The notes under the pieces: model-generated
What the model was told of the DNA's origin: nothing
Database searches by the model: none
The model's input: the letters and a program-made list of their open reading frames with translations, nothing else
Position numbers and translations under genes: made by a program
Part shown: positions 4,326 through 49,279 of the stretch, piece after piece
How positions within the stretch are numbered: the stretch's first letter is position 1
How the letters are laid out: each line of letters starts with the position of its first letter
NCBI RefSeq assembly: GCF_000143145.1
Contig: NC_014313.1
Location: 124,001-188,000, forward strand
Length of the DNA: 64,000 nucleotides
Source: Hyphomicrobium denitrificans ATCC 51888
Lineage (GTDB): Bacteria > Pseudomonadota > Alphaproteobacteria > Rhizobiales > Hyphomicrobiaceae
Direction: 5' to 3'

Positions 4326-5284
4326 TCACCCCGAGGATCGCTGTTCTTCCTCGATATGCGTTTCGTCTTGAGCAACGTGCGGCCGGATCATGGCTAGAAA
4401 AATCGGCGTCCATAAAAACAAATAGTGCGTGTTGAACGAACGCAGCGGCTCGCTCAGATCCGATGCCATGAAGCCATTGGCGAAAATGAGCATCGCTACG
4501 ACGAAAAACTTCTCATCCTTATTTTTTAGCTCGGATGCGCGAGAAAGCGCGACGGCCATCACGGCAATGAAAAAAATGGCGAGCGGAATCCCGAAGTGCA
4601 GAGCCATCCCAAGATAGGTATTGTGGGCGTGAGGAATTTCACCCGGGAAGCGAAAGGCGGATCCGACTCCCCAAAGTGGATGGCTCGCGATCGCATCGAG
4701 GCTTTGCATCCAGATGCCGTATCGCGACGGATCACGGCAAGCGAGCTCGATCTCGGGGCAGAGTACGTCGCGGATCGGGCCATAAAATAAGACGCCGGCG
4801 GCTACCAGTCCGTACGCGCCAAACGCGCTGACGAAGAGCAGCGTTCGAGATCCGTAACAAATGACCAAGGTCGTCAGGGCGAGCGCAAGTATCAGCGCAA
4901 GGAGCGGTCCGCGGCTGCCGGTAAGATAAATTGCGGTCAGCGTGATGCAGATCATCGTCGCCGCAAGCAACGCTTTCAGCGGCGTACGCCGAATGTCGAT
5001 GTGGTAGGCGAGCAAGGTGATAGCCGCGAACAGGCCTGCGGCCATCGCTCCAGCCGCGAGAATGGGATTATCGGTTCGACCGACGAGGAGCAATCTGCCG
5101 TCGATATGCGGGGCCGCTACCAAAGTGACGATCACGCATGCGCAGGCTGCACCCGCAGTTAGCCACAGGATTTCGCGAAAGCGCAGATGCAATTGTGCGT
5201 AAAGAATGAGACCGTATAAACCTGCAATGAAAAGCGCGTGAGATACGCCTGAACCGAACGTTGCGGTGGGACTCCCGTAGGGAG
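4326..5284 (-). pseudogene. O-antigen ligase/polymerase (Wzy_C family), C-terminal half cut off by the prophage
   Basis: This is the 3' part of the host gene: about 314 residues from PTATFGSGVSHALF to the stop, with multiple membrane helices. It carries TGSRGPLLAL and the HAHNTYLG motif, whose His is important in WaaL/Wzy enzymes. It has no start of its own and can be translated only as the tail of the integrase. The first half is at 48872-49279. It converges on pglF, 52 bases away; a weak CCGAAG/CTTCGG stem at 4282-4319 lies in that gap. Excision would restore the gene, so it is better called reversibly interrupted than decayed. Confidence 0.9.
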
Positions 5285-6476
5285 CGCCAGCGGCACCGGC
5301 CGCATCTGATTTCGCTGGCTTTTTCTTATTATTTGTCCCACTAGATTTTATATCTGGGATTGGTGGGACGCTTTCTCCTGCCTGGACACCCTTTTCCAAG
5401 AACGCCATGCCCAAGGCCGCCATTTTTTTCCGCTCGGCGGCGCGCGTATATATCTCGGCCTCCGCCAAGCTTCGCCAACCGAACATAGCCATCAACTGAT
5501 GTGCCGTGGCGCCGGCTTCCGCCGCGCGCGTTGATCCAGCTTTACGCAGCCCGTGTGCGGAGCATTGTGGCAGACCAGCCTCGATGCATCGGTCGTGAAA
5601 CCAGTTCCCGAAACCGGCGATCGTGAAGGGCTTACCGTACTCAGTCAAAAGGTAGACCATGTCACCGGTGGGCCCGGCCTGTATTGCGGCGGCAAGCGGC
5701 TGCAGCATGGGGATGTGAATGATGGTGGGATACCGGTTCCGGTTCTTGTGGGCCGTCCATCGGAGAGAATCACCTTGTTCGTGCTGCCGGCCAAGCTGCA
5801 CCGCATCCGATCTCCGGGCGCCGGTATACAGCATAATAGATAGGGCGAGGTGCGCCTTAGTTCCTAACGGATGGCGGCGCTGGAACGCTTCAATCTCATC
5901 CGGTAGCCAAGTGTGGTGACCGTTCGAGATCAAACGAGGTTTAGTTAGGCTGATCGCGGGATTCGCAACGCAATGCTTTTTGGATGTCGCCCATTTGAAC
6001 ATCGGCCGAAGTGCCTTGACCCGGTCTGTTGCGGCACCCGGCAGAGCCTTCTTGCGGTCGCGCAAAACTTCTAGGTCCGACAGTTTAATGCGGTCTAGAG
6101 GGAAGTTTCTGAATGTCTCAGCGGCCTCCTGAAAAATCGGCTCATTCAGCATCGATTCGAGTACGCGTGCTCTCGTGCGCTGTGTCGACGGATCGAGATT
6201 GGAGAAATCCTTCGATGCGCGGAAGGCCGTGACGAGCCACCCTAGGGTCCCTGGTACCGCGCTGACTGATGTCTTCTCGGCTTCTTTATAGCAACCCGTC
6301 GCAAACTGCTCGATGAGGGAGCTATAACGTTCTGCAAACTCGGGCGACGTCGGTCTCTCTCGGAGACGGATCTTCCGATATCCCGGATACCGAAAATAGA
6401 TGCGCACATTGCCGTGCCTGTCGGTATCCTCGACGAGATACCGGTATCCGATGCGCATGTCCGCCCCCACGGTCAT
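4326..6476 (-). CDS. int: Tyrosine integrase fused in frame to the C-terminal half of a host O-antigen ligase
   Basis: The 716-codon frame has two parts. Residues 1-402 are a phage tyrosine recombinase: N-terminal SAM-like region (~50-180), then the catalytic domain with Arg in TGARRSD (~222), HGLRKAG (His-x-x-Arg, ~310), a Trp in MFGWRS where many integrases have His, and the nucleophile Tyr in EIYTRAA. Residues 403-716 are host protein with about seven membrane helices and the Wzy_C signatures TGSRGP and HAHNTYLG. The join falls exactly at the attL core (Ser402). In the circular phage the protein would end seven residues after Ser402 (409 residues). Whether the lysogen really makes the membrane-tailed form, and whether it is active, is unknown. 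The start overlaps the excisionase stop by 4 bases. Confidence 0.93.
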   Translation of the reverse strand: MTVGADMRIGYRYLVEDTDRHGNVRIYFRYPGYRKIRLRERPTSPEFAERYSSLIEQFATGCYKEAEKTSVSAVPGTLGWLVTAFRASKDFSNLDPSTQRTRARVLESMLNEPIFQEAAETFRNFPLDRIKLSDLEVLRDRKKALPGAATDRVKALRPMFKWATSKKHCVANPAISLTKPRLISNGHHTWLPDEIEAFQRRHPLGTKAHLALSIMLYTGARRSDAVQLGRQHEQGDSLRWTAHKNRNRYPTIIHIPMLQPLAAAIQAGPTGDMVYLLTEYGKPFTIAGFGNWFHDRCIEAGLPQCSAHGLRKAGSTRAAEAGATAHQLMAMFGWRSLAEAEIYTRAAERKKMAALGMAFLEKGVQAGESVPPIPDIKSSGTNNKKKPAKSDAAGAAGAPYGSPTATFGSGVSHALFIAGLYGLILYAQLHLRFREILWLTAGAACACVIVTLVAAPHIDGRLLLVGRTDNPILAAGAMAAGLFAAITLLAYHIDIRRTPLKALLAATMICITLTAIYLTGSRGPLLALILALALTTLVICYGSRTLLFVSAFGAYGLVAAGVLFYGPIRDVLCPEIELACRDPSRYGIWMQSLDAIASHPLWGVGSAFRFPGEIPHAHNTYLGMALHFGIPLAIFFIAVMAVALSRASELKNKDEKFFVVAMLIFANGFMASDLSEPLRSFNTHYLFLWTPIFLAMIRPHVAQDETHIEEEQRSSG
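5271..5284. repeat. attL core: 14-bp direct repeat, left prophage end
   Basis: The 14 bases actcccgtagggag occur here and again at 48896-48909; the bases just outside differ (g/c on one side, c/g on the other). The core contains the dyad CTCCC-GTA-GGGAG, typical of a tyrosine-recombinase core with two inverted binding arms. It lies in coding sequence and reads Y-G-S in the frames of both the integrase fusion and the host gene, so strand exchange keeps both frames. Confidence 0.93.
5335..5369. promoter_or_regulatory. Candidate integrase arm-type sites next to attL
   Basis: The heptamer GTGGGAC occurs inverted at 5335-5341 (GTCCCAC) and direct at 5363-5369. The same heptamer occurs at 48804-48810 and inverted at 48854-48860 beside attR, and once on the host side overlapping the core (5266-5272). 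A pair within 100 bases of each prophage end suggests arm-type integrase or excisionase binding sites. This is inference from repetition only. Confidence 0.4.
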
Positions 6477-6742
6477 ACGGCGGCGCGGTCCCAGATGTCA
6501 CCAAGAGAATCACGATCGCCATCGGTATCGGGCAGAGCATCGAAGTAAGAGTCAAGCTTGCGGAGATCCCAGACGCGGCGGCCCCCTATAGGTTTGGGCT
6601 TAGGCATTAATCCGTCATCGACCATTTTGTCGAACTTACCGGGACTTATGCCGATGTAAGTCGCGGCTTCCTCGCGCGACAACCCGCGCGGCGCCAGATT
6701 GGCCGGCAATCTGCTCAGGCGATCAGCGCGAGATTTCGTCAT
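6473..6742 (-). CDS. Excisionase-like MerR/AlpA-type HTH protein
   Basis: 89 residues with a winged-helix motif near 20-60 (LSREEAATYIGISPGKFDKMVDDGLMP, broken here as LSREEAATYIG and SPGKFDKMVDDG), followed by the basic GGRRVWD wing usual in AlpA/Xis proteins. It lies directly before int with a 4-base ATGA overlap, so the two are translationally coupled. Likely role: directing the integrase toward excision. AlpA-type regulators have the same fold, so a transcriptional role is not excluded. Confidence 0.8.
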   Translation of the reverse strand: MTKSRADRLSRLPANLAPRGLSREEAATYIGISPGKFDKMVDDGLMPKPKPIGGRRVWDLRKLDSYFDALPDTDGDRDSLGDIWDRAAV

Positions 6743-6748
6743 CTCCCC

Positions 6749-6940: not shown

Positions 6941-6989
6941 TCTTCCCTCTCAAGTCCTGGATGTGAGTGGTGTAGTGAACGGATGGCTT

Positions 6990-7499
6990 TCACTCAGTCC
7001 TCGCGAACTCACCATGGTATTTTTGTGAACCTGCAATGTAGGCTGCGTGAGCTTGTTCCGGAGTGTCAAAGTAGCCAAGGCCGATTGATCTGCCGTGCAC
7101 CCGGATCTGAGCACGCCAGCAGCTTCGGCGCGCAAAGAAACTAACTCCCTTAAGTCCAGAGGTATTGTTGCGGCGTTTGCGGGAATTGCATTGATTTTGT
7201 GTTTGGGTCGCTTCGCGCAAATTCGCGAACCGATTATCATCTCGAATGCCATTGATGTGATCTAGCAGTGCATTCGGCCATTTCCCGGTCATATATAGCC
7301 ATGCAAGCCGGTGGGCGAGATACATGTGGCCGCCTACTTTTATGTTTCGATATCCGCAACTCTGTTGAGAGCCCGCTATCATGCCAATCCGGACAGGTCG
7401 AGCGACGCGGACCTTCCAAACGAACACACCACTATCAGGATTATAGTGGAGGACTTCTCGCAATTGTTCGGCGGTAACTGCGCAGAATTTCTCGCTCAC
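6990..7499 (-). CDS. HNH homing-type endonuclease with AP2 domain (copy 1 of 4)
   Basis: 169 residues from the GTG at 7497-7499, which has a GGGAG site at a suitable distance. N-terminal helix-rich segment, then HNH_3 core AHRLAWLY and LLDHINGIRDDNR (His/Asn/His cluster) at about 60-95, LREATQTQN, then an AP2 DNA-binding domain beginning NTSGLKGVSFF and ending KYHGEFA. Free-standing selfish endonucleases of this type occur in many phages. Three more copies with the same architecture lie at 23588, 39821 and 47132 in this prophage. Confidence 0.88.
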   Translation of the reverse strand: MSEKFCAVTAEQLREVLHYNPDSGVFVWKVRVARPVRIGMIAGSQQSCGYRNIKVGGHMYLAHRLAWLYMTGKWPNALLDHINGIRDDNRFANLREATQTQNQCNSRKRRNNTSGLKGVSFFARRSCWRAQIRVHGRSIGLGYFDTPEQAHAAYIAGSQKYHGEFARTE

Positions 7500-7503
7500 C
7501 AAA

Positions 7504-7851: not shown

Positions 7852-7863
7852 TGGGCTTAGTCC

Positions 7864-8118: not shown

Positions 8119-8121
8119 TCT

Positions 8122-14760: not shown

Positions 14761-14761
14761 T

Positions 14762-16626: not shown

Positions 16627-16977
16627 TCACGCGGCCTTTGATTCCCCACCCGAACTCTCGCTGGATGATCTTTTTTTTATAGCCAAAGGAAGAAGGTCAT
16701 TTGGCTCAACATTCAGCAGCTTACAGATGCGTGTAAGCGTGTAGACGTCGGGCATATGCGTTCCTCGCTCCCATGAGCGATAGGTGTGCTCCTCGATATT
16801 GAGCACTCGCGAAAACTCGTTTGCAAAGCGGAAGCCAGCCTCCTTTCGGGCGAGCTTCAATCTCTTGGCCAACGCCTTCTTCACCTGATCTTCGAGCCTT
16901 TCCATAGCGGGTAATTCTGCCTTACCCGCGGACTTATGCACGTCAAGCAAACTGACGAGCGCAGAGGTCTTGACCAT
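16627..16977 (-). CDS. XRE-family HTH repressor (CI/Cro-like)
   Basis: 116 residues from the ATG at 16975-16977; an internal start (MERLEDQVKK, 16905) is possible. Helix-turn-helix at ~40-90: RLKLARKEAGFRFANEFSR, VLNIEEHTYRSWERG, TLTRICKLLNVEPNDLL. No peptidase-type C-terminal domain, so it would not be a RecA-cleaved CI; induction may work otherwise. Operator C lies 15-29 bases upstream of the start, suggesting autoregulation, with operators A and B controlling the divergent promoters. Confidence 0.8.
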   Translation of the reverse strand: MVKTSALVSLLDVHKSAGKAELPAMERLEDQVKKALAKRLKLARKEAGFRFANEFSRVLNIEEHTYRSWERGTHMPDVYTLTRICKLLNVEPNDLLPLAIKKRSSSESSGGESKAA

Positions 16978-16991
16978 AGCGAATGAAAAAA

Positions 16992-17006
16992 GTAAGGTCA
17001 AGTTAC
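16992..17006. promoter_or_regulatory. Operator C (GTAA-N7-TTAC palindrome) before the repressor gene
   Basis: gtaaggtcaagttac with flanks AAAA and GCG, closely matching operator B (AAAAGTAAG...TTACGCG). Lies in the repressor's 5' leader region. Confidence 0.65.
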
Positions 17007-17201
17007 GCGGACGCCTTTCATACCATGAGCGGGGGACAATGATTCCGCCATGCAACCGTCAGTGTGCATCGCAAAACGATAGGACGTGCACTGCATGATC
17101 ATCGAAGTCCCTAAGCGCAGAGCGGAGGCGAGAGTCGCATGAACAATGCTGCTGCATTACGAGCTCTTCAGGAGATGCCTCAGGTTTGCAACGTCGACGC
17201 A

Positions 17202-22026: not shown

Positions 22027-23064
22027 CTAAGCCCTGAGAGCGATCCTCAGTTGCTTCCCGTGACGCGTCACCTCCAGCAGGTCTTCGACCTCTTGCCGAC
22101 GCCGGGTTGCAGCCCCTTCATCGATGCCGAGCAACTCAGCCAGTTGCCTGTGACTTGTGACGGATCCTCCGTTGCCTCGCAGAGCTTTGACGACGGGATG
22201 GTTTCGAAAGTCGATGACCTCTTTCGGGAACGGCTTGCGACGCTTGCCTTTCGGAGGTTCGGGCGGTTCCGGCAACTCAACTGAACTGGGGAACGAGGTT
22301 TGAAGCGTGTCGGCAACTGAGGCAAACGACTTGATCTGACTCGGCAATTGATCGTTTGCGGCAACTAAAACCGGACGCTTGCTTTGCCGGAACGCGAATC
22401 CGAGCGAGACGATTGCTCCGACTTCGAAGAACAGGGTGGTCAAGAAGGGCACCAGCAACGTCAGGACGGCAACGATCTGGGGCTTTGAAGCGGGGACAGG
22501 GAACAGCCGCACGATGTCGGCCATCGCTTCCGCCTTGGCATTGACGGGCTTCTGTGGGCCCAGGGCGGCGATTTCCGCCTCGAGCTGTAGGATGACGACC
22601 GTGATGTCTTTCGAGTTCTGCTTCCAGTCCTTGCAGCGCTGGCCGCAACGCTGCCCGGTCATCTCCCGATCCGCAGCACGGTCGGCATAGTCGCGCCGGG
22701 CTCGAGCCGCTTTCAGGTCTTCGGTCTTGTCAGCAATCTTCGTGTTGTTGTCTTCGACCGAGAGTGTGGTGGTGCCAGCGGTTTCAACCTGACGGCCAAC
22801 GGAGGAATACACGACAAGACCGGTTCCCGACAGAAACAGCACGAGGAAGCCGAGAGTTGCGAACAGATGGCGGGCGCGCGCGGCGTCGACCATGAGATGC
22901 CCGGCCGCGATCGTACCGAAGACGGTCAGAATCGTGAGCCATTGCGACGAAGCCCATTCGAGCGGCCTCGTCAGGTCTTTGTCGAGCAGGATGGTCAACC
23001 CGCCAGCCGCAAAAGCGCAGCCGGCGATGATTGCGAGTGCCCGCCCCTTGAGAGAGGTGCTCAT
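22027..23064 (-). CDS. Membrane protein with extracytoplasmic coiled coil and C-terminal winged-helix domain
   Basis: 345 residues from ATG 23062-23064. Three N-terminal helices (~8-110), then a coiled-coil segment with a Cys pair (RCGQRCKDW), two more helices (QIVAVLTLLVPFLTTLFFEV and following). A cytoplasmic tail ends in a winged helix (VVKALRGNGGSVTSHRQLAE, LLGIDEGAATRRRQEVED). This is a membrane-tethered DNA-binding layout. A similar membrane/coiled-coil topology without the HTH occurs at 25453. No known family recognised. Confidence 0.65.
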   Translation of the reverse strand: MSTSLKGRALAIIAGCAFAAGGLTILLDKDLTRPLEWASSQWLTILTVFGTIAAGHLMVDAARARHLFATLGFLVLFLSGTGLVVYSSVGRQVETAGTTTLSVEDNNTKIADKTEDLKAARARRDYADRAADREMTGQRCGQRCKDWKQNSKDITVVILQLEAEIAALGPQKPVNAKAEAMADIVRLFPVPASKPQIVAVLTLLVPFLTTLFFEVGAIVSLGFAFRQSKRPVLVAANDQLPSQIKSFASVADTLQTSFPSSVELPEPPEPPKGKRRKPFPKEVIDFRNHPVVKALRGNGGSVTSHRQLAELLGIDEGAATRRRQEVEDLLEVTRHGKQLRIALRA

Positions 23065-23180
23065 TTGCCGATGCTCCCCTCGATCATCGTTTCGACGAAG
23101 AGGCTCAGAACAACGACCGCGCCTAAAATAAGAACCGGTGATGCCGTGACGAAGACTAATAGGAGTGATAGTCCAGACAT
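23061..23180 (-). CDS. 39-residue membrane peptide
   Basis: MSGLSLLLVFVTASPVLILG start, nearly all hydrophobic. Stop overlaps the start of the 345-residue membrane protein (ATGA), so the two are coupled and may interact. Confidence 0.5.
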   Translation of the reverse strand: MSGLSLLLVFVTASPVLILGAVVVLSLFVETMIEGSIGK

Positions 23181-23260
23181 TGGGTTTCAATCCTTCTTGC
23201 TAAGGTTGAGATCAAGAGCCCTGCCGCGGTGTCAGCCGTTGCGGGGCTCGATTGATAGAA

Positions 23261-26613: not shown

Positions 26614-26777
26614 ACATTCAGAACATGGACTTCATGCAGATCGTTCACTTGGCCGGGCGCGTCGTGTGCGCGCTCGGCTTGGCGATGTTCTTTTTCAACA
26701 TCAATCTCGGCATTCAGGCGTTCGCGCATCCCGGGATTGAGGTTGCGGCTGCCGGCTGGATTATGAAAAGCCTCTGA
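26610..26777 (+). CDS. 55-residue membrane protein
   Basis: Coupled to both neighbours (ATGA at its start, TGATG at its end). One hydrophobic segment around VVCALGLAMFFFNI. Unknown role, perhaps a partner of the preceding membrane protein. Confidence 0.5.
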   Translation: MNIQNMDFMQIVHLAGRVVCALGLAMFFFNINLGIQAFAHPGIEVAAAGWIMKSL

Positions 26778-30919: not shown

Positions 30920-32955
30920 CTCCAAGCACCGCCCTCGTTCCGGCAGAGGCGCAAGCGTTTACGCCCGACCTTGGCCGCTACCGCAAATGGTTCACGGCCT
31001 ACGAGACGAACAAGTCGGACGAAATCCAAGAGCAGCTTGTCCATGAGGCCTACTACAACAGCACGGGGCACTGGACAGAGGAAGAAGCCCGAAAGCTCAG
31101 GATACGCGGTCAGGCGCCGATCTTCGACAACCGCATCGCGCGCAAGATCGATTTCCTCGTCGGCGTTGAGCAGCGCATGCGCCGTGACCCCAAAGGCTAT
31201 CCGCGCACGCCGAATGACGAGCAGTCTGCCGACGTTGCCACGGCTGGCATGCGCTATGCCTGCGACATCAACCGATGGGACTTCGTAGGCTCGGGCGGCA
31301 CGCATGATGGCCTCGTGCGGGGGATTGGTGTCTGCTTCGTCGGCATCAAGCAGGGCATGACCGGACCTGATCCCGAGATCAAATCCGTCCAGAGTGATCG
31401 CTTCTTCTACGACCCTCGCTCAAAGCGCCCAGACTTCGAAGATGCTCGCTACATGGGCCTGCATCTTTGGATGGACATTGACGACGCCAAGGAGAAATGG
31501 CCGGACAAGGCGCAACAGCTTCAGCAGGTCATCGACAGTGTGGCGGCCGGCGGCATCCTCTCCCGTGTCGATCAGAACCAAGAGACTGCTTGGGCTGAGT
31601 TCGAAAGCCGCCGCGTTCGCGTCGTCGAGTTCTGGGAGAAGACACCGCGGGGGTGGACGTACTGCTACTTCGTCGGCGAAGTGATGCTCGACGGCGGAGT
31701 TTCGCCGTATCTCGATGACGAAGGAAAGCCGGATTGCCCGTACGCGGCATGGTCGCCGTATGTTGACGAGAGAGGCAACCGTTACGGCCCGATCCGCAGC
31801 ATGAAGCCGATGCAGGACGAGGCGAACCATCGCCGGTCCAAGGCTCTGCACCTGTTCACGACCAAGCAGCTGCATTTCCGCAGAGGAACGCTCGAAGACG
31901 TCGATAAGACGCGATCGGAACTCGCGAAGCCCGACGGCATGATCGAGCACGACGGAGATTGGGGCAATGAGGTCGGCATTGTCGACCACTCGATGGACGT
32001 TGCTGGGCAGATGCAATTGCTCGAGCAGGCGCAGGCCTCGCTTGAAAACCTCGGGCCCAACCCTGGCCTGATCGGCAAGGGTGGCGGCGTCGCCGATCAG
32101 TCCGGCCGGGCGATCCTTGCTCAACGTGACTCGGGCATGACGGAACTGTCTCCCGTGTTCGAGCGCAACAGGGACTGGAAGCTCCGCGTCTATCGCAAGC
32201 TCTGGTCGCGCATCAAGCAGTCCTGGACCGCAGAGAAGTGGATCAGGATCACGGACGAGAACGACGCGCCGCAGTTCATCGGGCTCAACCAGTACAACAT
32301 CGACCCTCAGACCGGGCAGGCGGTGAGCCAGAACGTCGTCGCCATGATCGATGTCGACATCATCATGGAAGAAGGCCCGGACGTTATCACGATGAACGAG
32401 GAATTGCTGCAGACGCTATCGCAGCTTGGTCCGAACGCGGTCCCGCCGAAGGTGCTGATCGAACTTTCTAACGCTCCGAATAAGGAACGTCTGTTCAAGA
32501 TGATCGACGAAGCGACACAGCCGGACCCGGTTGTGCAGCAGATGCAGCAGCGTATGGCGCGGCTTGAACAGCTGGTACAGGCATCGACGGTCGACAAGAA
32601 CGTGGCGCAGAGCGAACTCTACCGGGCGCAAGCGGCGGCGGCCTTGCTGACGGCATCGACGCCACAGCAGCAGAAACCGATGATTGACAAGATGGGCAAC
32701 GCAATCCCGCAAGCACCGGCACCTATGCCGAATCTCGGTATCGCTCAGCAAGCGTTGCAGATGTTCCCATTCCACTACGCTCAGCCGACAATCGAGCAAT
32801 ACGCGGAGAACGCGTCACCGCCGCAGCCGCCGGCTGATCCAGACGATCAGCAGCAACCCGGGGAACCGTTGCCGCAACAGAACGCAGCCTTACCGCCTCC
32901 GTCAGGAATGCCGGGCGGACTACCCGTCAACCCACAAATCGCAGGGATGCAATGA
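30916..32955 (+). CDS. P22-type portal protein
   Basis: 679 residues from ATG 30916 (ATGA overlap with terL); an ATG 12 bases earlier is possible. LVGVEQRMRRDPKGYPRTP near the N-terminus, DEANHRRSKALHLFTTKQ mid-protein and a C-terminal Gln/Pro-rich tail match P22-like portals. Forms the dodecameric portal vertex. Confidence 0.9.
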   Translation: MTPSTALVPAEAQAFTPDLGRYRKWFTAYETNKSDEIQEQLVHEAYYNSTGHWTEEEARKLRIRGQAPIFDNRIARKIDFLVGVEQRMRRDPKGYPRTPNDEQSADVATAGMRYACDINRWDFVGSGGTHDGLVRGIGVCFVGIKQGMTGPDPEIKSVQSDRFFYDPRSKRPDFEDARYMGLHLWMDIDDAKEKWPDKAQQLQQVIDSVAAGGILSRVDQNQETAWAEFESRRVRVVEFWEKTPRGWTYCYFVGEVMLDGGVSPYLDDEGKPDCPYAAWSPYVDERGNRYGPIRSMKPMQDEANHRRSKALHLFTTKQLHFRRGTLEDVDKTRSELAKPDGMIEHDGDWGNEVGIVDHSMDVAGQMQLLEQAQASLENLGPNPGLIGKGGGVADQSGRAILAQRDSGMTELSPVFERNRDWKLRVYRKLWSRIKQSWTAEKWIRITDENDAPQFIGLNQYNIDPQTGQAVSQNVVAMIDVDIIMEEGPDVITMNEELLQTLSQLGPNAVPPKVLIELSNAPNKERLFKMIDEATQPDPVVQQMQQRMARLEQLVQASTVDKNVAQSELYRAQAAAALLTASTPQQQKPMIDKMGNAIPQAPAPMPNLGIAQQALQMFPFHYAQPTIEQYAENASPPQPPADPDDQQQPGEPLPQQNAALPPPSGMPGGLPVNPQIAGMQ

Positions 32956-33212
32956 GCCTCGACGCCGAAATGAAACGACTGAGCGCGATTGCTCGGGCGC
33001 ACGAAGTTTACGATTGCCTCGACCGCATTGGCTCCCTCCGTCGGCATCTCACGGCGCTGCTTAGTAATCATGATGCGGCGCTCGCCGGTAACGCCAAGCG
33101 CGACTGCAACGCGTTCTGGCATCGTCTCGATGAACTCGCGCTCAGGGCGGATGCGACGAGAGAAGTCGCCGCGGGCCACGAGCGTCCCTTCAAGGATTAC
33201 AAGCCGGAATGA
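32952..33212 (+). CDS. Small helical protein, unknown
   Basis: 86 residues, overlapping the portal gene by 4 bases (ATGA). Helical with several Arg/His; no family recognised. Confidence 0.55.
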   Translation: MSLDAEMKRLSAIARAHEVYDCLDRIGSLRRHLTALLSNHDAALAGNAKRDCNAFWHRLDELALRADATREVAAGHERPFKDYKPE

Positions 33213-33379
33213 ATGAATCCATCGACCTGTTCTCGCCCCTGTTTAAGGGCAGCGAAGCGGCATGGAAGTGGATTTGTGACGTTTCAAACGGGCGATGGAG
33301 CGAGCCGCCCGAACTGACACCAGAGCAGAAAGCCTATGCCGAGCGCGTCGGCTATTTGCCACTACGTAGACGTGCGTAA
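33209..33379 (+). CDS. 56-residue protein, unknown
   Basis: Starts at ATG 33209 with a 4-base overlap. MNESIDLFSPLFKGSEAAWK start, Arg-rich end. A CGCCGC-ctcaa-GCGGCG-TTT hairpin follows at 33384-33403, a weak terminator or processing site before the scaffold gene. Confidence 0.52.
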   Translation: MNESIDLFSPLFKGSEAAWKWICDVSNGRWSEPPELTPEQKAYAERVGYLPLRRRA

Positions 33380-33495
33380 GACTCGCCGCCTCAAGCGGCG
33401 TTTCGCGACCATCCGCGCGTAATCGGATGAACCTCGCACCAGCCGGGCGACATCGGCTGCTTTCGTGACCAGCAACGATACTGCGGAGAGAGACA

Positions 33496-34368
33496 ATGAC
33501 GACTGAACAGTCGGCAGACGATACCCTTTTGAATGACGTGTTTTCGAGTGGCCGCGAGAGGGGGGCAGATACCGCCGCTCCCGCCGAGCCGGAAGCCAAG
33601 GCAGAAGAACCGACAGCCGAACCGCAATCGAAAGAAGCGGCAGAGCCAGAGGTAAAGCCTGAAGCAACCGACGCGGAGCCCAAAGGATACCGCGATCCAT
33701 CAACAGGGAGATTTGTCCCTCTCAAAGAGCTGACCTCAGAACGTGAAAAACGCCAGTCGGCGGAAAAAGCACGGGATGAAGAAGCTCGTCTGCGCAAGGA
33801 TGCCGAAGACAACTGGCGCCGCACTCAGGCCCAGGTCGAAGAAATCCAGCGCAGAATTCAGGCGCAAGCCCAACCGCATCAACCGCCGCCCGATCCGAAC
33901 CTCGATCCGGCCGGCGCCATGGCGTTCCAGCAGGAACAATTCCAACAGGCTCTCCTCAACCAGCGTTTGAACACCTCCGAGATGTTTGCCCGGAACAAGC
34001 ACGGCGATCAGATCGTCGATGCCGCGTTTCAGGCAGCGCAGCAGGCCGGTGTTCTCAAATCCTTCGTCGGCAGCAGAGATTGCTACGGCGAGCTGGTGAA
34101 ATGGCACCGTCATCAGCAGGTCTTGGCCCGAGTGGGTGAAGATCCTGACGCCTACGAGAAGACGCTTGAGGACAAGATCCGCGCCAAGGTGCTGGAAGAA
34201 TTGAAGACCGGAAACCGGGCAGTGATGCCGGGACAGACGCCGCCCCCAGTACAGCAGTTCCCAGGCTCCCTCGCAGACGCGACCGGAACGGGATCGAACG
34301 CTGCTGTGCCCGTTAGCGACGAAGCCATCATGGGCAACGTTTTCGGTTCAAACCGAAAACGAAAGTAA
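33496..34368 (+). CDS. Capsid scaffolding-type protein
   Basis: 290 residues with GGAGAGAGACA upstream. Highly charged, Ala/Glu/Pro-rich N-terminus (~25-65), RDPSTGRFVPLKEL motif, coiled coil (~75-120), C-terminal basic end (GSNRKRK) that could contact capsid protein. Position between portal and major capsid gene is standard for scaffolds. Confidence 0.8.
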   Translation: MTTEQSADDTLLNDVFSSGRERGADTAAPAEPEAKAEEPTAEPQSKEAAEPEVKPEATDAEPKGYRDPSTGRFVPLKELTSEREKRQSAEKARDEEARLRKDAEDNWRRTQAQVEEIQRRIQAQAQPHQPPPDPNLDPAGAMAFQQEQFQQALLNQRLNTSEMFARNKHGDQIVDAAFQAAQQAGVLKSFVGSRDCYGELVKWHRHQQVLARVGEDPDAYEKTLEDKIRAKVLEELKTGNRAVMPGQTPPPVQQFPGSLADATGTGSNAAVPVSDEAIMGNVFGSNRKRK

Positions 34369-36273: not shown

Positions 36274-36625
36274 GCTTGAGCTGGCGACGAATGTCCTGCT
36301 GCATTTCAACATCATCGCAGCGGAGGAGTCGCCGTCGGCCAGCGACAGCATGTACGTCATCGGCCGCTATCGCGACCTTTTCAACGAGATGACGTTGAAC
36401 GACGAGACGTACTGGAACATCGGGCAGGTGCCGGCCGAAATCTTCGAGCCGCTCACCCAGATGGTCGCCCTGACGGTCGAGAAGGCGTTCGGGAAAGCTG
36501 CCGCCATGCCGCCTGCTGACTATGCCCGCAGCCTGGATGAAGGGATGCGCATCTTGCGGCGGAGGCTTCGCCGAACGGTCAATGTGCGCTCGGCCGAGAT
36601 GCCAACCTATGCGGATGATTTCTGA
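36254..36625 (+). CDS. P22 gp4-like tail accessory / head-closure protein
   Basis: 123 residues. The LELATNVLLHFNIIAAEESPS start and the helical middle (MVALTVEKAFGKAAAMP) resemble gp4-like adaptors that bind below the portal. Followed at once by the gp10-like gene (TGATG), as expected in P22-like modules. Confidence 0.72.
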   Translation: MATTRTELELATNVLLHFNIIAAEESPSASDSMYVIGRYRDLFNEMTLNDETYWNIGQVPAEIFEPLTQMVALTVEKAFGKAAAMPPADYARSLDEGMRILRRRLRRTVNVRSAEMPTYADDF

Positions 36626-39215: not shown

Positions 39216-39821
39216 ATGGGGTTCTTTTCGGACTTCACGGGCGCCTCCGCGCGCTCTGATATCAACAAGGCCAATAAGAACGCCAACGCGGCTCTCGATC
39301 AGGGCTACAACACCTCGCAGGGGTACTACGATCAGGCGGCAGGTTCGTTCGATCCGTACGTGTCGTCAGGAACCGCCGGTCAGAAGATGTACGGCGATCT
39401 TCTCGGGCTCAATGGCACCGACGCGAGGTCATCGGCTCAGGACATCATCACGTCCGATCCGCTCTGGTCCGGAAAGCTTGGTGAAGACACCAACGCGGTC
39501 CTGAAAAACCTCAATGCTCGGGGCATGGGCGCTTCCGGAACGGCGGCGCTCGCCGGTCAACGTGTTCTGCTTCAAAACTACAACGACGTGCTCGACCGAT
39601 ATCAGGGCATGGGCCAGACGGGCCTCTCGGCCACGGGACAGCAGGCCGGTGTTCGAACGGCACAAGGCCAAAACGCGTTTGATTACGGCGCGACCAAAGC
39701 GGGCAATGCGATAAATTTCGGAAACGCGATGGCCGGCACGCGTAACGCTGGTCTGAACAACGTGCTCGCTGTGCTCGGGACAGGCGCCAAGGCTTACGGC
39801 GCCTACAACGGAGTAAAGTGA
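39216..39821 (+). CDS. DNA-ejection protein candidate (P22 gp7-like position)
   Basis: 201 residues with AAGGAAATCCC upstream. MGFFSDFTGASARSDINKAN start and Gly/Ala/Asn-rich helical body (ALDQGYNTSQGYYDQAAGSF), similar to small injected proteins of P22-like phages. The HNH-AP2 gene follows with a one-base overlap. Confidence 0.7.
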   Translation: MGFFSDFTGASARSDINKANKNANAALDQGYNTSQGYYDQAAGSFDPYVSSGTAGQKMYGDLLGLNGTDARSSAQDIITSDPLWSGKLGEDTNAVLKNLNARGMGASGTAALAGQRVLLQNYNDVLDRYQGMGQTGLSATGQQAGVRTAQGQNAFDYGATKAGNAINFGNAMAGTRNAGLNNVLAVLGTGAKAYGAYNGVK

Positions 39822-40309
39822 TGCTGGATCAAGAACGTCTCAAGCAACTTCTCTCATATGATCCAGAGATCGGGGAGTTTCGTTGGATTGCTCCGACTGA
39901 CAGAATGAGAAAGAAAGGAGCCGTTGCCGGTTTTCTCGACGCCAAACGCTATCGCAAGATTAAGATAGATGGCGTCTGCCATTATGCGCATCGGTTGGCG
40001 TGGCTGTATGTTCATGGCGAATTTCCAAAACTTCTGATCGACCACTGCAATCGCGATCCATCTGACAATCGGATGGAGAATTTACGAGAGGCGACCTACG
40101 GAGAAAATGTCGCCAACAGTGTAATTCGCAAGTCGAAGACAGGGTATCGCGGCGTGAAGAAAAACAGCCGTGGTGCTATGTTTTCCGCATCCATTATGAA
40201 GAATGGACGTCATCACTTTCTCGGAAACTATAAGACTAAGGAAGACGCTGCAGCAGCATATAACCGTGCCGCTCGCAGCCTTTTCGGTGCGTTTGCGAGG
40301 GCTGATTAA
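39821..40309 (+). CDS. HNH homing-type endonuclease with AP2 domain (copy 3 of 4)
   Basis: 162 residues. AHRLAWLYVHGEFP, LIDHCNRDPSDNR, LREATYGEN and then an AP2 domain (KTGYRGVKKNSRG ... LFGAFA). It interrupts the run of ejection-protein genes exactly at gene borders, with one-base overlaps on both sides. An insertion into a late operon without breaking any gene fits a homing element. Confidence 0.88.
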   Translation: MLDQERLKQLLSYDPEIGEFRWIAPTDRMRKKGAVAGFLDAKRYRKIKIDGVCHYAHRLAWLYVHGEFPKLLIDHCNRDPSDNRMENLREATYGENVANSVIRKSKTGYRGVKKNSRGAMFSASIMKNGRHHFLGNYKTKEDAAAAYNRAARSLFGAFARAD

Positions 40310-43797: not shown

Positions 43798-43811
43798 CTA
43801 GGACCCCCCGC

Positions 43812-45161
43812 ATGACTGACTCAACCTATGTGTTCCCCCCTGGGGAACGCATCACAGATGATTCAACCGGTGCTCCGATCTCTGGAGCGACGATCTATTT
43901 CTATGACGCTCAGACCACTAATGCCAAAACGGTCTATGCCGATGCCGATCTGACCGCAAGTCTCGGAACCTCGGTTGTCACGGATTCCCAAGGCTATCCG
44001 ACAACCAACGGCATCACCCGGACCCTGATCTATGTCGGGACAGCACCGTATAAGATCGTCATCAAGGACAGCAGCTCCAACACCATTGCGACGCACGATA
44101 ATATCCCCGGCGCCGTCGTTTCTGCATCGTCCAGCGATGTTGCCGTCACCGCATCGTTTCCCGTCGTCACGAAATCCCTGAACTACACGGTCGTCAAAGA
44201 CGATCAGAACAGCCTGTTCAAAATCAATTGCTCATCAGGCGACGTGACGCTCACCCTGCCGTCTGCGGTCGCAATGGGGAACGGCTGGTGCATTCGGGTC
44301 CAGCACGCCGGATCGGCAAATCAGGCGATCCTGGCAACTGTATCCTCGCAGCTCATTTCCGAAGGCTCGAAATCGTTTTCGACCGGATATGCGCTGGCGC
44401 TCAACGGCGAAGACATCGAACTCAGGTCGGATGGTGGAAACTGGAGCGTCGTTTCCCACACCTCGCCTTTCATCAAAGTCGCTCAGGGCATCATTCCGAT
44501 CACGGATAGGCTTTCGGCCCCGCCGGTCTCTCCGCAGCATGGGGCGTTCTATCTCCTCACGTCATCTCCATCCGGCGCATGGTCGACCTTCTCCCAGCAC
44601 GACATCGTGCAGTATCACGGTGGATCTGCAGCCTGGGTGAACTTCACCCCGTACACGGATTGCGGATGGTTCGCGTACGTCGCGGATGAAAATCTGAACT
44701 ATCAGTTCCGAGACTCGGCTTGGGTGCCAGAGAGCGCAACCAATTCAGTTGCCGGAACGGTCAAGACGGCAAGTCAGGCGGTGCAGGAAACCTCAACGGC
44801 AACCGATACCGCAGTCACGCCCGCAACTCAGCAGTTCCATCCGAGTTCTCCGAAATGGTGGCTGGAAGCCACAGTATCGGGCGGCACCCCGACCGTCGTG
44901 GCCTCATACAACAACACGTCAATAACCGATGCGAACGTGGGCGTTTTGACAGCAACGATCGCGACGGATTTTTCCAGTGCGAACTGGGCATGTCACGTTA
45001 CCTGCCGGGGGCCGGACACCACGCAAGGGCGTGCTGGATGGGTGTACGACTCGTCGCAGTCCGCAGGAGCAATTACCGGTCTCTGCTACACCCTCGGTAG
45101 TTCATCGCCCTCGAATACAGACCCAACGGCTTGGTATCTCTCGGGGCTCGGCGATCAATGA
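43812..45161 (+). CDS. Tail fibre / appendage protein with DUF2793-like segment
   Basis: 449 residues. N-terminal SGATIYFYDAQTTNAKTVYA is typical of fibre head-binding domains. A central segment (~225-305: GAFYLLTSSPSGAWS, HDIVQYHGG, GWFAYVADENLNYQF) matches DUF2793-like fibre modules, and a C-terminal beta domain follows. May be a second receptor-binding protein besides the tailspike. Confidence 0.72.
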   Translation: MTDSTYVFPPGERITDDSTGAPISGATIYFYDAQTTNAKTVYADADLTASLGTSVVTDSQGYPTTNGITRTLIYVGTAPYKIVIKDSSSNTIATHDNIPGAVVSASSSDVAVTASFPVVTKSLNYTVVKDDQNSLFKINCSSGDVTLTLPSAVAMGNGWCIRVQHAGSANQAILATVSSQLISEGSKSFSTGYALALNGEDIELRSDGGNWSVVSHTSPFIKVAQGIIPITDRLSAPPVSPQHGAFYLLTSSPSGAWSTFSQHDIVQYHGGSAAWVNFTPYTDCGWFAYVADENLNYQFRDSAWVPESATNSVAGTVKTASQAVQETSTATDTAVTPATQQFHPSSPKWWLEATVSGGTPTVVASYNNTSITDANVGVLTATIATDFSSANWACHVTCRGPDTTQGRAGWVYDSSQSAGAITGLCYTLGSSSPSNTDPTAWYLSGLGDQ

Positions 45162-46729: not shown

Positions 46730-46977
46730 TGGTCGTGATCGAAAACATTCTCGAATTCTTCTTCGACAAGGTTGGCGGCAAACTCATTCTTGGTGGAGCT
46801 CTGATCGCCAGTCTCATCACATGGTTTGCGTACGAACAAAGAAGCATCGGAGCGGCAAAGACAGTCGCGAAGATAGAACAACGGACACAAGCCAATGTCG
46901 AAAAAGCTCAAGCCGCTCGCCGCTCGGTCGAAACCCTTCCTGCTGACAGGCTTACTGATCGCTACCGTAGGGATTAG
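46729..46977 (+). CDS. Rz: Inner-membrane spanin (Rz-like)
   Basis: 82 residues: N-terminal membrane helix (GGKLILGGALIASLITWF) and periplasmic coiled coil (VAKIEQRTQANVEKAQAARR). Overlaps the endolysin by one base and contains the start of Rz1 in another frame, the classic spanin layout. Confidence 0.78.
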   Translation: MVVIENILEFFFDKVGGKLILGGALIASLITWFAYEQRSIGAAKTVAKIEQRTQANVEKAQAARRSVETLPADRLTDRYRRD

Positions 46978-47116
46978 CGGCTGCTCGAGCGTGCCCGTCG
47001 ATTCCGGCTGCCGTTCCTTTAAGCCCATAGGCTGGAGCAAGGCCGACACCGAGCCGACGAAGCGCGCGGTCGTCGCTCACAACAAAGTCTTCGACGCCAT
47101 TTGCCCGAACTCGTGA
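46895..47116 (+). CDS. Rz1: Outer-membrane lipoprotein spanin (Rz1-like)
   Basis: 73 residues in the +1 frame relative to Rz, starting inside it. Signal peptide with lipobox VGISGC; Cys30 would be acylated, leaving a 44-residue mature lipoprotein. Joins with Rz to fuse inner and outer membranes at lysis. Confidence 0.78.
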   Translation: MSKKLKPLAARSKPFLLTGLLIATVGISGCSSVPVDSGCRSFKPIGWSKADTEPTKRAVVAHNKVFDAICPNS

Positions 47117-47131
47117 GGCTCTCGCCAAGAA

Positions 47132-47617
47132 CTAAAAGTTTGCGAACTCGCGATGGTATTGGTTGGCGACTGTCAAATAAGCCGAATACGCCTCTTCTCT
47201 CGTGTCATAGCAACCGATGTTGATCTGATTACCGTTGACTCGTAGCTGCGCAAACCACTTCTTTCTATCGGCGCGCCAACAAACGCCTTTGAGTCCAGAT
47301 GTATTTCTCGGGGGCTTTTTACGGTTATATAGGTTTTCGGATCGTGTGGCCTCGCGAAGATTGGCAAGCCGATTGTCGCCTTTCTGGCCATTGATATGGT
47401 CGATCTCAGCAACGGGCCACGCTCCAGTCTCGTAAAGCCAAGCAAGCCGATGTTGGAGATAGCGTCTGCTATCAATACTTATGTCTTTGTAGCCGGTATT
47501 GTTTGTTCTTCCGGCGACATCTCCGACCTTGACTCTATTGCTTCTCGAAATCTTCCACAAGAACACGCCGGTGTTCGGATCGTAGTCGAGAAGTTCTCTC
47601 AGTGTTTTCTGATCCAT
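47132..47617 (-). CDS. HNH homing-type endonuclease with AP2 domain (copy 4 of 4)
   Basis: 161 residues from ATG 47615-47617 (MDQKTLRELLDYDPNTG). QHRLAWLYETGAWP, EIDHINGQKGDNR, LREATRSEN, then NTSGLKGVCWRADRKKW and QYHREFANF. Inserted between the spanins and the accessory genes, on the strand opposite to late transcription. The divergent copies suggest separate arrivals or old duplications. Confidence 0.88.
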   Translation of the reverse strand: MDQKTLRELLDYDPNTGVFLWKISRSNRVKVGDVAGRTNNTGYKDISIDSRRYLQHRLAWLYETGAWPVAEIDHINGQKGDNRLANLREATRSENLYNRKKPPRNTSGLKGVCWRADRKKWFAQLRVNGNQINIGCYDTREEAYSAYLTVANQYHREFANF

Positions 47618-47652
47618 ATCGGAAGAGTATCTAATTCGAGGAATCGCGAGAA

Positions 47653-48429
47653 ATGCCCGATTACGTTCCTCCACAGAATAAGAAGGACTCCGAATTAACA
47701 TATCGGATGTCGTTTTTGCCGTTCGGGACCTACGCAAACCCGGACGGAACGGAATCTCTCGGGCTTGCAATTCCTGGAATGATCCAAGAGCCGATCAACG
47801 CACTTTCTCGTCTCTTCGGCACGCCTTCCAATCCAGGAACCTTCGGACAAGGCCCAGATGCACCGGGCAATGCCGACGATATGCGCACCCTCCTGATGTC
47901 GATGTACGGCGGGAATGCGATGAACCCGGCAGCGGCTATACCAAAAGGAGCGCTTTCATCTGGCGCCCTTCGCGAGGCGCCGCAGCGCATGTATCACGGG
48001 ACCGCGGCGGCAGAGGACTTCCGGAATTTTAAGCCGAGCTCCGAAGGCTCATTCGGCCCCGGTGTCTATCTCTCTGAAAGCCCCGCCGTCGCCTCAGAGC
48101 GGGCTCTTACAGATACCGGATCACGCGTGTTCCCGGTCGATGCGCAAGGTCCGTTTGCATCCGTGGATGATTACCTGACTGCGCTCCATGGCAATGGGAG
48201 AGATCCAGTCGCAGCACAGCAGTCGCTTGGACAACAGGGCTACACGGGCGTTTCTGGCGACCTTGGGAGCTATGGCCATCCGGCGCCTGTCACGAACGTT
48301 TTTCAACCTGGGAGCATCCGCAGCGCCACGACGGGCGAAACCCTCTACTCAGACGGCCTTCCGTCGATCTGGGGCAACGCTCTTGCACCCTCTCAAGACG
48401 AACCCCGTAACGCTCTCCTGAACTACTAG
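47653..48429 (+). CDS. ADP-ribosyltransferase-like phage protein
   Basis: 258 residues. The segment RMYHGTAAAEDFRNFKPSSE ... GPGVYLSESPAVASERAL (His115, Tyr139) resembles the H-Y part of ADP-ribosyltransferase-like folds found in phage PolyVal and ejected proteins. A third catalytic acid cannot be placed with confidence. The N-terminal ~100 residues look unstructured and Gly/Pro/Asn-rich, as in virion-associated proteins. Either an ejected effector or a moron; activity unproven. Confidence 0.55.
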   Translation: MPDYVPPQNKKDSELTYRMSFLPFGTYANPDGTESLGLAIPGMIQEPINALSRLFGTPSNPGTFGQGPDAPGNADDMRTLLMSMYGGNAMNPAAAIPKGALSSGALREAPQRMYHGTAAAEDFRNFKPSSEGSFGPGVYLSESPAVASERALTDTGSRVFPVDAQGPFASVDDYLTALHGNGRDPVAAQQSLGQQGYTGVSGDLGSYGHPAPVTNVFQPGSIRSATTGETLYSDGLPSIWGNALAPSQDEPRNALLNY

Positions 48430-48468
48430 TGCCCGCGTTCCAACAACCGGAACGAAAGAACATGTCAA

Positions 48469-48729
48469 ATGCAGGACTCTCCCGGGTCGCTTCCGCCCTG
48501 GCTTATGAACTGGATGCTGGGCGTGGAAAGCCGCTTAGGGAACATCCAGGGTCAACTTCGGCACCTTGGAGCCAAGACTACGGAGAGGGCCGAAGGACGC
48601 CCAACCTGGCAGCCTCGCGATTACATGGCGGCGGGAGCTGGTATAGCGATGGTTCTGGCAGCGATCGCGGACAAGATCGGGTGGACAACCCTCGCAGCTT
48701 CCCTGGTCAAGCTCTATGGCGGACGATGA
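48469..48729 (+). CDS. Holin-like small membrane protein candidate
   Basis: 86 residues. A charged N-terminal half (ESRLGNIQGQLRHLGAKTTE) precedes a membrane helix (YMAAGAGIAMVLAAIADKIG) and a short amphipathic end. Could be a holin displaced from the endolysin/spanin genes, or a virion-lysis accessory. A competing frame over the same bases has worse composition. Confidence 0.48.
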   Translation: MQDSPGSLPPWLMNWMLGVESRLGNIQGQLRHLGAKTTERAEGRPTWQPRDYMAAGAGIAMVLAAIADKIGWTTLAASLVKLYGGR

Positions 48730-48803
48730 AGGCTGCCCTCTGCCCCGGGACGTGGGTGTTTTGTGTCTGCCTCGCCATAGCGACGTTCATAGTGGTGGTT
48801 TAG
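48726..48803 (+). CDS. 25-residue membrane peptide, last prophage gene
   Basis: ATG overlaps the previous stop (ATGA). MKAALCPGTWVFCVCLAIAT start, almost wholly hydrophobic. Could be a holin partner; support is limited to overlap and pattern. Confidence 0.38.
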   Translation: MKAALCPGTWVFCVCLAIATFIVVV

Positions 48804-48860
48804 GTGGGACACTACGGCTTGCGACGCAAAGAAACACCGATGGCACATTTTGCGTCCCAC
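48804..48860. promoter_or_regulatory. Candidate integrase arm-type sites next to attR
   Basis: GTGGGAC at 48804-48810 and its inverse GTCCCAC at 48854-48860, 36-92 bases inside attR. Matches the pair beside attL. As RNA these would also form a stem of eight pairs (GGTGGGAC/GTCCCACC), so a terminator-like role for the late operon end is an alternative. Confidence 0.4.
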
Positions 48861-48871
48861 CATCAATTAAG

Positions 48872-49279
48872 TCATTGATCTTTGGCGTTTTTGACACTCC
48901 CGTAGGGAGGCAATAGCAGGCGCATCTCGCTCGCGATGAGAAACGCAACGACGATGGGCGCCATCAGCGGCGTCGGCAATTCGGAGCTGCGCGGTTTGCG
49001 AAAGATCAAAATCCAACTGACGGCGAAACACGCGACGGCAACGACTTGGGATACGCCTCCTTTGAGAAAAAAGATCGAGACTAGAAACGCAATGAAGAGT
49101 GCGCGTGCTGGATTGTCACGGATTTTTTGGCTAAGCTTTTCCGCGATGGAGTAGACGGATGCTGCTGAAAGCATATGAGCCACGTTGTCGTTTGCCGTCT
49201 CGTCCGACTTTGACGGCGAATCGCGACGCATTGCACTGGGATGGTTCAACTGGATAATTCCTGTCCCGCGCGCATGCAA
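48872..49279 (-). pseudogene. O-antigen ligase/polymerase, N-terminal half cut off by the prophage
   Basis: Residues from the start to PPYGS are host; the last seven codons before the stop (48872) come from phage DNA. Membrane helices visible: ALFIAFLVSIFFLKG, VVAVACFAVSWILIF and LMAPIVVAFLIASEM. The start is uncertain: ATG 49279, ATG 49228 (425-residue restored protein) or ATG 49174. It is divergent to the glycosyltransferase at 49274. Joined to 4326-5273 it makes a protein of about 425-442 residues, normal for this family. Confidence 0.88.
48896..48909. repeat. attR core: 14-bp direct repeat, right prophage end
   Basis: Second copy of actcccgtagggag. To its right the minus strand encodes the N-terminal half of the host O-antigen ligase (reading ...LLLPPYGS). 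To its left it reads into phage DNA as V-K-N-A-K-D-Q-stop, which is the native C-terminus of the phage integrase. Recombination with attL would rejoin PPYGS to PTATFGSGVS and restore the host gene in frame. Confidence 0.93.

What the first reader, a model, noticed from the sequence alone, without database searches (positions are those of the whole stretch)
5271..48909. Prophage integration swaps C-termini between the phage integrase and a host O-antigen ligase, reversibly and in frame
The 14-bp core lies inside both coding sequences in the same frame (Y-G-S). In the lysogen the integrase gains 314 residues of host membrane protein, including the Wzy_C motifs, and the host N-terminal half gains VKNAKDQ-stop from the phage. 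Recombination of the cores on paper restores a 409-residue integrase and a ~425-442-residue host protein with no base changes. Lysogeny therefore knocks out a surface-glycan gene and puts a membrane tail on the integrase. A P22-like phage with a polysaccharide-type tailspike would benefit by removing its own receptor from lysogens (superinfection exclusion by integration). The tail could also hold the integrase at the membrane or keep it inactive until needed.
Basis: partly seen in the sequence, partly recalled or inferred. Interest (0 to 1): 0.9.

Follow-up and report, generated by a model that had tools for sequence, protein, structure and literature searches.

The report
tRNA-targeting prophage integrated at secondary site
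A virus that normally inserts into a tRNA gene has also inserted, through a short sequence match, into a sugar-coat gene of the same bacterium, fusing its integrase to part of that gene's membrane protein; the fusion is real in the sequence but looks like a side effect rather than a strategy.

Summary
The sequence observation is correct. The 14-bp core (5271-5284, 48896-48909) lies in frame in both genes: the integrase ORF runs 716 aa into the last 314 aa of a Wzy_C/WaaL-like protein, and the host N-part gains VKNAKDQ-stop. Natural unrecombined forms exist: a 98%-identical 409-aa integrase ending PYGSVKNAKDQ, and 93%-identical 425- and 432-aa host proteins. The targeting interpretation is not supported. 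The same genome holds a second, nearly identical prophage (1,579,216-1,622,625) at the 3' end of tRNA-Glu(UUC), with a 19-bp core that leaves the tRNA intact; its integrase ends PYGSRTRLFRLKI (411 aa). Eleven other genomes of the genus have the core once each, in tRNA-Glu in 10; 28 of 39 related integrase loci abut a tRNA. So tRNA-Glu is most likely the primary attB, and the host gene a secondary site, whose conserved LPPYG codons resemble the tRNA-Glu end. A changed integrase end on integration is known from phage Mx8. Loss of this host gene's function is likely. Receptor removal as a strategy, or a working membrane anchor, has no support here: no polysaccharide-degrading tailspike domain was found in the proteins tested, the junction lies in a predicted periplasmic loop, and integrase tails are hypervariable.

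The parts
5271..5284 (.). att core, int side (junction phage / host 3' part), 14 bp
   Evidence: exact repeat of 48896-48909
48896..48909 (.). att core, right side (junction phage / host 5' part), 14 bp
   Evidence: exact repeat of 5271-5284
5271..6476 (-). phage tyrosine integrase, residues 1-402 of the 716-aa ORF
   Evidence: Phage_integrase 198-348; P0001 98% identical; identical copy at C1:1579226-1580422
4326..5270 (-). 3' part of the interrupted host O-antigen-ligase-type gene, fused in frame to int (314 aa)
   Evidence: Wzy_C at ORF residues 510-637; homologues P0121/P0122
48896..49279 (-). 5' part of the interrupted host gene (128 aa as called from a TTG)
   Evidence: matches the N-terminus of P0121/P0122 and of the G017 gene
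48872..48895 (-). phage-encoded VKNAKDQ-stop appended to the host 5' part
   Evidence: same residues end natural integrase P0001
5271..48909 (.). prophage (43.6 kb), near-identical to a second copy at G000:C1:1579216-1622625
6473..6742 (-). small HTH_17 protein upstream of int, candidate excisionase/RDF (role inferred)
   Evidence: HTH_17, 22.6 bits, below the curated 27
5335..5341 (-). GTGGGAC, candidate Int arm site (inferred)
5363..5369 (+). GTGGGAC, candidate Int arm site (inferred)
48804..48810 (+). GTGGGAC, candidate Int arm site (inferred)
48854..48860 (-). GTGGGAC, candidate Int arm site (inferred)
16627..17055 (-). C1/Cro-type HTH protein, candidate repressor, identical in both prophage copies
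2318..4273 (+). host polysaccharide biosynthesis gene beside the interrupted gene
   Evidence: Polysacc_synt_2
49241..50008 (+). host glycosyltransferase family 25 gene on the other side
   Evidence: Glyco_transf_25; same order in G017
50224..51534 (+). host flippase-type gene of the same glycan locus
   Evidence: Polysacc_synt

Best explanation
A temperate, probably P22-like phage whose attP overlaps the 3' end of its own integrase gene normally integrates at the 3' end of host tRNA-Glu(UUC). There a 19-bp shared core keeps the tRNA whole and the integrase gets a 9-residue tail read from the tRNA's antisense strand. In this genome that site is filled by one copy. A second, near-identical phage sits at the only other place with an exact 14-bp match, inside an O-antigen-ligase-type gene of a glycan locus. 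Because attP lies inside int, integration swaps the integrase's last residues for whatever the target encodes; here the target frame happens to be open for 314 codons, giving a 716-aa ORF, and the host gene is truncated. Shown by sequence: both insertions, both att pairs, three int ends (attP form in P0001, tRNA form, host-gene form) and an intact host gene in relatives. Inferred: that tRNA-Glu is the preferred site and was filled first, that Int made the second insertion, that the host gene is functionally lost, and that the membrane tail does nothing useful.
For: Second copy with exact core boundaries in tRNA-Glu(ttc). Exact core four times in the genome, all prophage ends; next best site has one mismatch. 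In 22 genomes of the genus, own included, 12 have the exact core; the other 11 have it once each, in tRNA-Glu(ttc) in 10. In 39 related integrase loci an antiparallel tRNA lies at the int 3' end in 28 by my distance rule, overlapping the int ORF in 11. Natural attP-form Int P0001. Intact host gene in P0121, P0122 and G017, whose junction DNA matches 11 of 14 core bases. Int tails of 21-131 residues after a Tyr present in 120 of 120 listed homologues.
Against: An exact 14-bp second match is lucky (about 0.03-0.05 expected per genome, own arithmetic). GTGGGAC, the candidate arm motif, also touches the core in the host flank (5266-5272), so the site may be better than chance. The host-gene copy has whole terminase and portal frames while the tRNA copy has both interrupted, so the secondary-site copy may be the productive one. 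Both copies share the same repressor candidate, so how a second, presumably homoimmune, phage settled is unexplained. No recombination was measured.
Confidence: 0.88

Rival explanations
1. Integration into the ligase-type gene is an evolved strategy: it removes the surface glycan that the phage uses as receptor, excluding superinfection, and excision restores it.
For: The gene lies in a glycan locus and is interrupted; fold like WaaL; in-frame junctions would restore it without base change; the copy at this site has whole packaging genes.
Against: Primary site is most likely tRNA-Glu. The exact core is absent from G017's intact gene (11 of 14), and the gene itself was found in only 3 of 80 related genomes, own included. 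No polysaccharide-degrading domain in the tail candidates tested. Other Wzy_C genes exist in the genome.
Confidence: 0.06
2. The 716-residue fusion is a functional regulator: the membrane tail holds Int at the membrane or keeps it inactive in the lysogen (an extreme form of the Mx8 switch).
For: The tail has many hydrophobic segments and the frame is open; Mx8 shows that a swapped Int end can change specificity (PMC6070905, passages).
Against: Junction maps to a predicted periplasmic loop between helices 3 and 4, so the remaining helices would be out of register behind a cytoplasmic Int (inference). Residues after the core are not conserved between P0001 and P0002. The second copy supplies the same Int with a short tail in trans.
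Confidence: 0.05
3. The duplication is an assembly artefact: one prophage, placed twice.
For: The copies are nearly identical outside one block: 6 substitutions and 11 single-base indels.
Against: Each copy has its own unique flanks and exact att boundaries and a block at 32610-34020 differs strongly. The genome is a single contig.
Confidence: 0.04

Closest known systems
Myxococcus xanthus phage Mx8
   Same: attP lies in the int coding sequence and integration gives int a new 3' end (PMC6070905, passages)
   Different: Mx8's altered Int was tested and changes specificity; here nothing is tested, the primary site is a tRNA, and the new end at the second site is 314 host residues of a membrane protein
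tRNA-site phages using secondary attachment sites, e.g. mycobacteriophage Fionnbharth
   Same: a tRNA-site tyrosine integrase that can use other chromosomal sites (PMC10865867, passages)
   Different: Fionnbharth does not rebuild the tRNA and its secondary sites were seen with a tRNA-defective mutant; here the tRNA is kept whole and the secondary site is used beside a filled primary site
Archaeal suicidal (SSV1-type) integrases
   Same: recombination site inside the integrase gene (PMC8371274, passages)
   Different: there the gene is split and the enzyme lost; here the catalytic domain stays whole and only residues after the core change
Integration-dependent immunity (mycobacteriophage BPs)
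   Same: integration changes the end of a phage gene that contains attP (PMC4557955, search listing only; detail recalled)
   Different: there the gene is the repressor; here it is the integrase, and the repressor candidate lies 11 kb away

Membership tests
tRNA-targeting tyrosine-integrase prophage | regular attB at the 3' end of a tRNA gene, tRNA kept whole | tested here: met
   second copy in tRNA-Glu(ttc), 19-bp core; met by that copy, not by the window copy
tRNA-targeting tyrosine-integrase prophage | tyrosine recombinase with catalytic Tyr | tested here: met
   Pfam PF00589; Tyr column 120 of 120
Mx8-type int with attP inside | att core inside the int coding sequence | tested here: met
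   core encodes the codons up to residue 402; attP-form P0001 continues seven residues
Mx8-type int with attP inside | lysogen form of Int differs at its C-terminus | tested here: met
   409 (P0001), 411 (tRNA copy) and 716 (window) residue forms
Mx8-type int with attP inside | lysogen form has altered activity or specificity | not testable with these tools
   needs a recombination assay
Mx8-type int with attP inside | sequence relationship to Mx8 Int | not tested
   Mx8 Int was not compared
SSV1-type suicidal integrase | integration separates the catalytic domain from the rest | tested here: not met
   catalytic Tyr 343 lies upstream of the core at residue 402
integration-dependent immunity | attP inside the repressor gene | tested here: not met
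   core in int; HTH repressor candidate at 16627-17055
superinfection exclusion by integration into a receptor gene | receptor gene is the phage's regular attB | tested here: not met
   tRNA-Glu copy and genus survey
superinfection exclusion by integration into a receptor gene | phage adsorbs to the glycan made by the gene | not testable with these tools
   no depolymerase-type domain found in the proteins tested, which is weak evidence

The most novel reading that the evidence does not exclude
The integrase's C-terminus is a read-out of integration state and site: the attP tail when free, a tRNA-antisense tail at the primary site, a long target-encoded tail at secondary sites. In the ligase-type gene the long membrane tail cripples Int and so stabilises the copy with whole packaging genes, while loss of the glycan shields the double lysogen from further phage.
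Probability: 0.07. Interest if true: 0.75.

Novelty: new member of a known kind. Interest (0 to 1): 0.4.

Why it matters
One genome holds two near-identical prophages, one at a tRNA site and one inside a protein gene, with the same 402-residue integrase carrying two different target-encoded ends; a third end is seen in a natural attP-form relative. That is a ready natural experiment on whether integrase tails matter and on how a filled tRNA site pushes a phage into coding genes. It also probably explains a mis-named protein: the intact host-gene homologue P0127 is listed as 'integrase family protein' of Hyphomicrobium denitrificans 1NES1, a name that may have spread from this chimera (inference).

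Tried and rejected
Rejected: receptor-gene targeting, once the tRNA-Glu copy was found. Considered: integrase-host fusions as a habit of the family. Long frames in L019, L020, L062 and L063 extend upstream of the integrase, not downstream. L066 has about 117 residues beyond the match, and 5 of the 120 listed homologues have tails of 100-131 residues (P0024, P0052, P0054, P0067, P0086); I did not work out what these encode. None of the 120 listed homologues has a second precomputed Pfam domain (that search admitted about 394-1253 residues, scored only the 7997 candidates sharing most words, and listed 120 of 244). So this is not fully settled.

Led nowhere: viral-contig scan for the core plus right-arm sequence (0 hits); PDB sequence search with the ligase profile (one hit at E 0.8); two original Mx8 papers (not held), so Mx8 rests on a review's passages. 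A search for 'Hyphomicrobium denitrificans' with 'prophage' listed two papers, judged from the listing alone not to be about this prophage; that is my only basis for having seen it nowhere in print. A search for prophage, integrated, O-antigen, wzy, disrupt and attB listed one paper, not read. Passages of PMC11476347 (tRNA hot spots in Sinorhizobium) were seen and not needed.
Full report
OBSERVATION. The 14-bp repeat ACTCCCGTAGGGAG is at 5271-5284 and 48896-48909 and nowhere else in the window. On the minus strand it is read as P-Y-G-S in both genes. The integrase frame continues through it for 314 residues to 4326, giving 716 aa, with Phage_integrase at residues 198-348 and Wzy_C at 510-637. 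The host N-terminal part (128 residues as called from a TTG) ends with phage-encoded VKNAKDQ. ARAGORN finds no tRNA in the window.

NATURAL UNRECOMBINED FORMS. A search with residues 1-400 gave 244 proteins, 120 listed. The best, P0001, is 98% identical, 409 aa, longest contig 41,471 bp, and ends GAPYGSVKNAKDQ, the form predicted for the unintegrated phage. P0002 (87%, 409 aa) ends GAPYGSDVDDNNQ. The joined host protein found 23 homologues; the best two are 93% identical, 432 and 425 aa. Among 80 related genomes 3 matched, the own genome included. G017 has an intact gene (68%) between the same two neighbours, a Polysacc_synt_2-type gene and a GT25-type gene. Its contig length, 3,808,687, equals that listed for P0127, labelled Hyphomicrobium denitrificans 1NES1, so the genus is Hyphomicrobium.

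THE SECOND COPY. Searching the integrase in 397 genomes of the order gave matches in 75 at E <= 1e-40, and a second 100%-identical copy in the window's own genome; the best match elsewhere is 54%. Around it lies a nearly complete second prophage, C1:1,579,216-1,622,625: 27,692 bp at 99.7% and 15,540 bp at 99.9% identity to the window, with boundaries exactly at the cores. A quick pairwise alignment gives 185 differences. Nearly all lie in a block at window 32610-34020 and a cluster of three at 36289-36337; elsewhere there are 6 substitutions and 11 single-base indels (recounted). The left end of this copy lies in tRNA-Glu(ttc) (L047:9161-9235). The shared core there is 19 bp, ACTCCCGTAGGGAGCGCCA, so the tRNA stays whole, and the integrase ends GAPYGSRTRLFRLKI at 411 aa.

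PRIMARY VERSUS SECONDARY SITE. The exact core occurs four times in the genome, all at these prophage ends; one further site has one mismatch and seven have two, and the control pattern read backwards gave 15 matches at up to two mismatches against 12 for the core. In 22 genomes of the genus, own included, 12 have the exact core. The other 11 have it once each, in tRNA-Glu(ttc) in 10; the eleventh (L074) lies 24 bp from a contig end with a left flank that is not tRNA. Ten genomes lack the exact core. I examined 39 related integrase loci: four, and six fetched, mostly because of long frames, so not a random set; the own locus L015 was left out. An antiparallel tRNA starts between 120 bp before and 300 bp after the int stop in 28, inside the int ORF in 11. 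Three more (L024, L027, L038) have a tRNA 94-97 bp past the int stop, but my stop calculation ran past an internal stop. Three (L008, L009, L019) end at or within 20 bp of a contig end; the tail of L008 is the same tRNA-derived peptide as in L006 and L007. Five (L023, L025, L042, L044, L066) have no tRNA there. The 28 are Phe 14, Glu 9, Met 2, Lys, Arg and Leu one each.

WHY THIS HOST GENE. In G017's intact gene the corresponding DNA matches 11 of 14 core bases. Codons for a conserved LPPYG motif (P114 and P115 invariant, G117 nearly so in 22 homologues) resemble the tRNA-Glu 3' end, which explains how this gene could serve as a secondary site. A full 14-bp match is still lucky, about 0.03-0.05 expected per genome (own arithmetic). 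The shared strand and frame is a 1-in-6 event.

ARM SITES. GTGGGAC occurs twice in each phage end, as inverted pairs (5335 minus, 5363 plus; 48804 plus, 48854 minus), all within about 100 bp of the core. The whole window has 8 copies against about 12 expected from base composition, so the clustering at attP stands out. A fifth copy (5266) is in the host flank and touches the core. That these are Int arm sites is inferred.

WHAT THE TAIL DOES. The catalytic-Tyr column (residue 343 of P0001) is Tyr in 120 of 120 listed homologues; tails from it range from 21 to 131 residues, median 52.5, and vary widely in sequence. The seven residues after the core differ between P0001 and P0002. The tail therefore looks permissive. 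In the AlphaFold model of intact P0121 (mean pLDDT 76) the junction (residues 115-118) falls in the loop between helices 98-112 and 125-146, much of it low confidence. With the N-terminus inside, that loop is periplasmic and carries no charged residue. The remaining helices behind a cytoplasmic integrase would be out of register, so a working anchor is unlikely (inference). The one fold match at E <= 0.001 is WaaL O-antigen ligase (7tpg, E 7.6e-4, TM-score 0.53), in keeping with Wzy_C; ligase versus polymerase remains open. Four other Wzy_C matches exist in the genome, three over the curated cut-off, so the loss may be partly covered.

PHAGE TYPE AND RECEPTOR. Terminase, portal, major head and head-closure proteins match PHROGs, and two proteins match 'DNA ejection' and 'released from the phage upon host infection' families, in keeping with a P22-like phage. 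In 50,697 phage records the nearest portals are about 36% identical (Pseudanabaena phages) and the nearest integrase 43% (Sinorhizobium phage phi2LM21). The tail-fibre candidate 43812-45161 has weak tail-fibre PHROG matches and only DUF2793 in Pfam; 26777-28507 matched nothing. No polysaccharide-degrading domain was found in the proteins tested; not every ORF of the prophage was scanned, and absence from these libraries is weak evidence.

RESULTS AGAINST MY READING. In the tRNA copy the terminase and portal frames are interrupted, while the window copy has them whole; in the other direction some frames are longer in the tRNA copy (for example the ORF at window 25453, 386 against 441 aa). If the sequence is right, the secondary-site copy may be the more competent one. 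Single-base indels in long near-identical repeats may also be sequencing errors. Both copies carry an identical C1-like candidate (no difference between 15818 and 17663), so how the second copy settled, by co-infection or past immunity, is unexplained. The GTGGGAC beside the host site and the luck of a full 14-bp match leave room for a site better than random.

KNOWN OR NEW. A review states that Mx8's attP lies within int, that integration creates a new 3' end of int, and that this does not inactivate the integrase but modifies its specificity (PMC6070905, passages). Use of secondary sites by a tRNA-site phage is described for Fionnbharth (PMC10865867, passages). SSV1-type integrases are split on integration and so differ (PMC8371274, passages). 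The case is a new member of known kinds: striking as a chimera, ordinary in its likely mechanism.

Noticed in passing
G000:C1:1579216-1622625 (L047-L049): Second near-identical prophage in tRNA-Glu; terminase and portal frames interrupted there, whole in the window copy.
   Followed up: partly
window 32610-34020: Mosaic block in which the two prophage copies differ strongly (portal 3' end to the following ORFs), while the rest is nearly identical: suggests two separately circulating sibling phages.
   Followed up: partly
window 5266-5272: A fifth GTGGGAC, the candidate arm motif, sits in the host flank touching the core; it may have helped capture this site or be chance.
   Followed up: no
P0127 (intact host-gene homologue, H. 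denitrificans 1NES1): An intact Wzy_C protein carries the source name 'integrase family protein', perhaps a label spread from this chimera.
   Followed up: no
window 47653-48429: Weak ART-PolyVal (ADP-ribosyltransferase) match, 28.1 bits against a cut-off of 31.2, beside the right att end.
   Followed up: no
window 6990-7502, 39818-40309, 47132-47770: Three ORFs that look alike to the eye (HNH/AP2-endonuclease-like, recalled motif); no family search was made on them.
   Followed up: no
L074 (G011), position 24: Core at a contig end with a non-tRNA left flank and a tRNA-Glu-type right flank: probably another element integrated at tRNA-Glu.
   Followed up: no
L012 (G028) 1402-3435: A distant homologue (40%) of the host protein sits in a 677-aa ORF whose C-terminal part resembles the neighbouring GT25 protein by eye; possible natural ligase-GT25 fusion.
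   Followed up: no
window 22027-23190: Weak PADLOC match to JetA (DUF2397), 20.4 bits.
   Followed up: no
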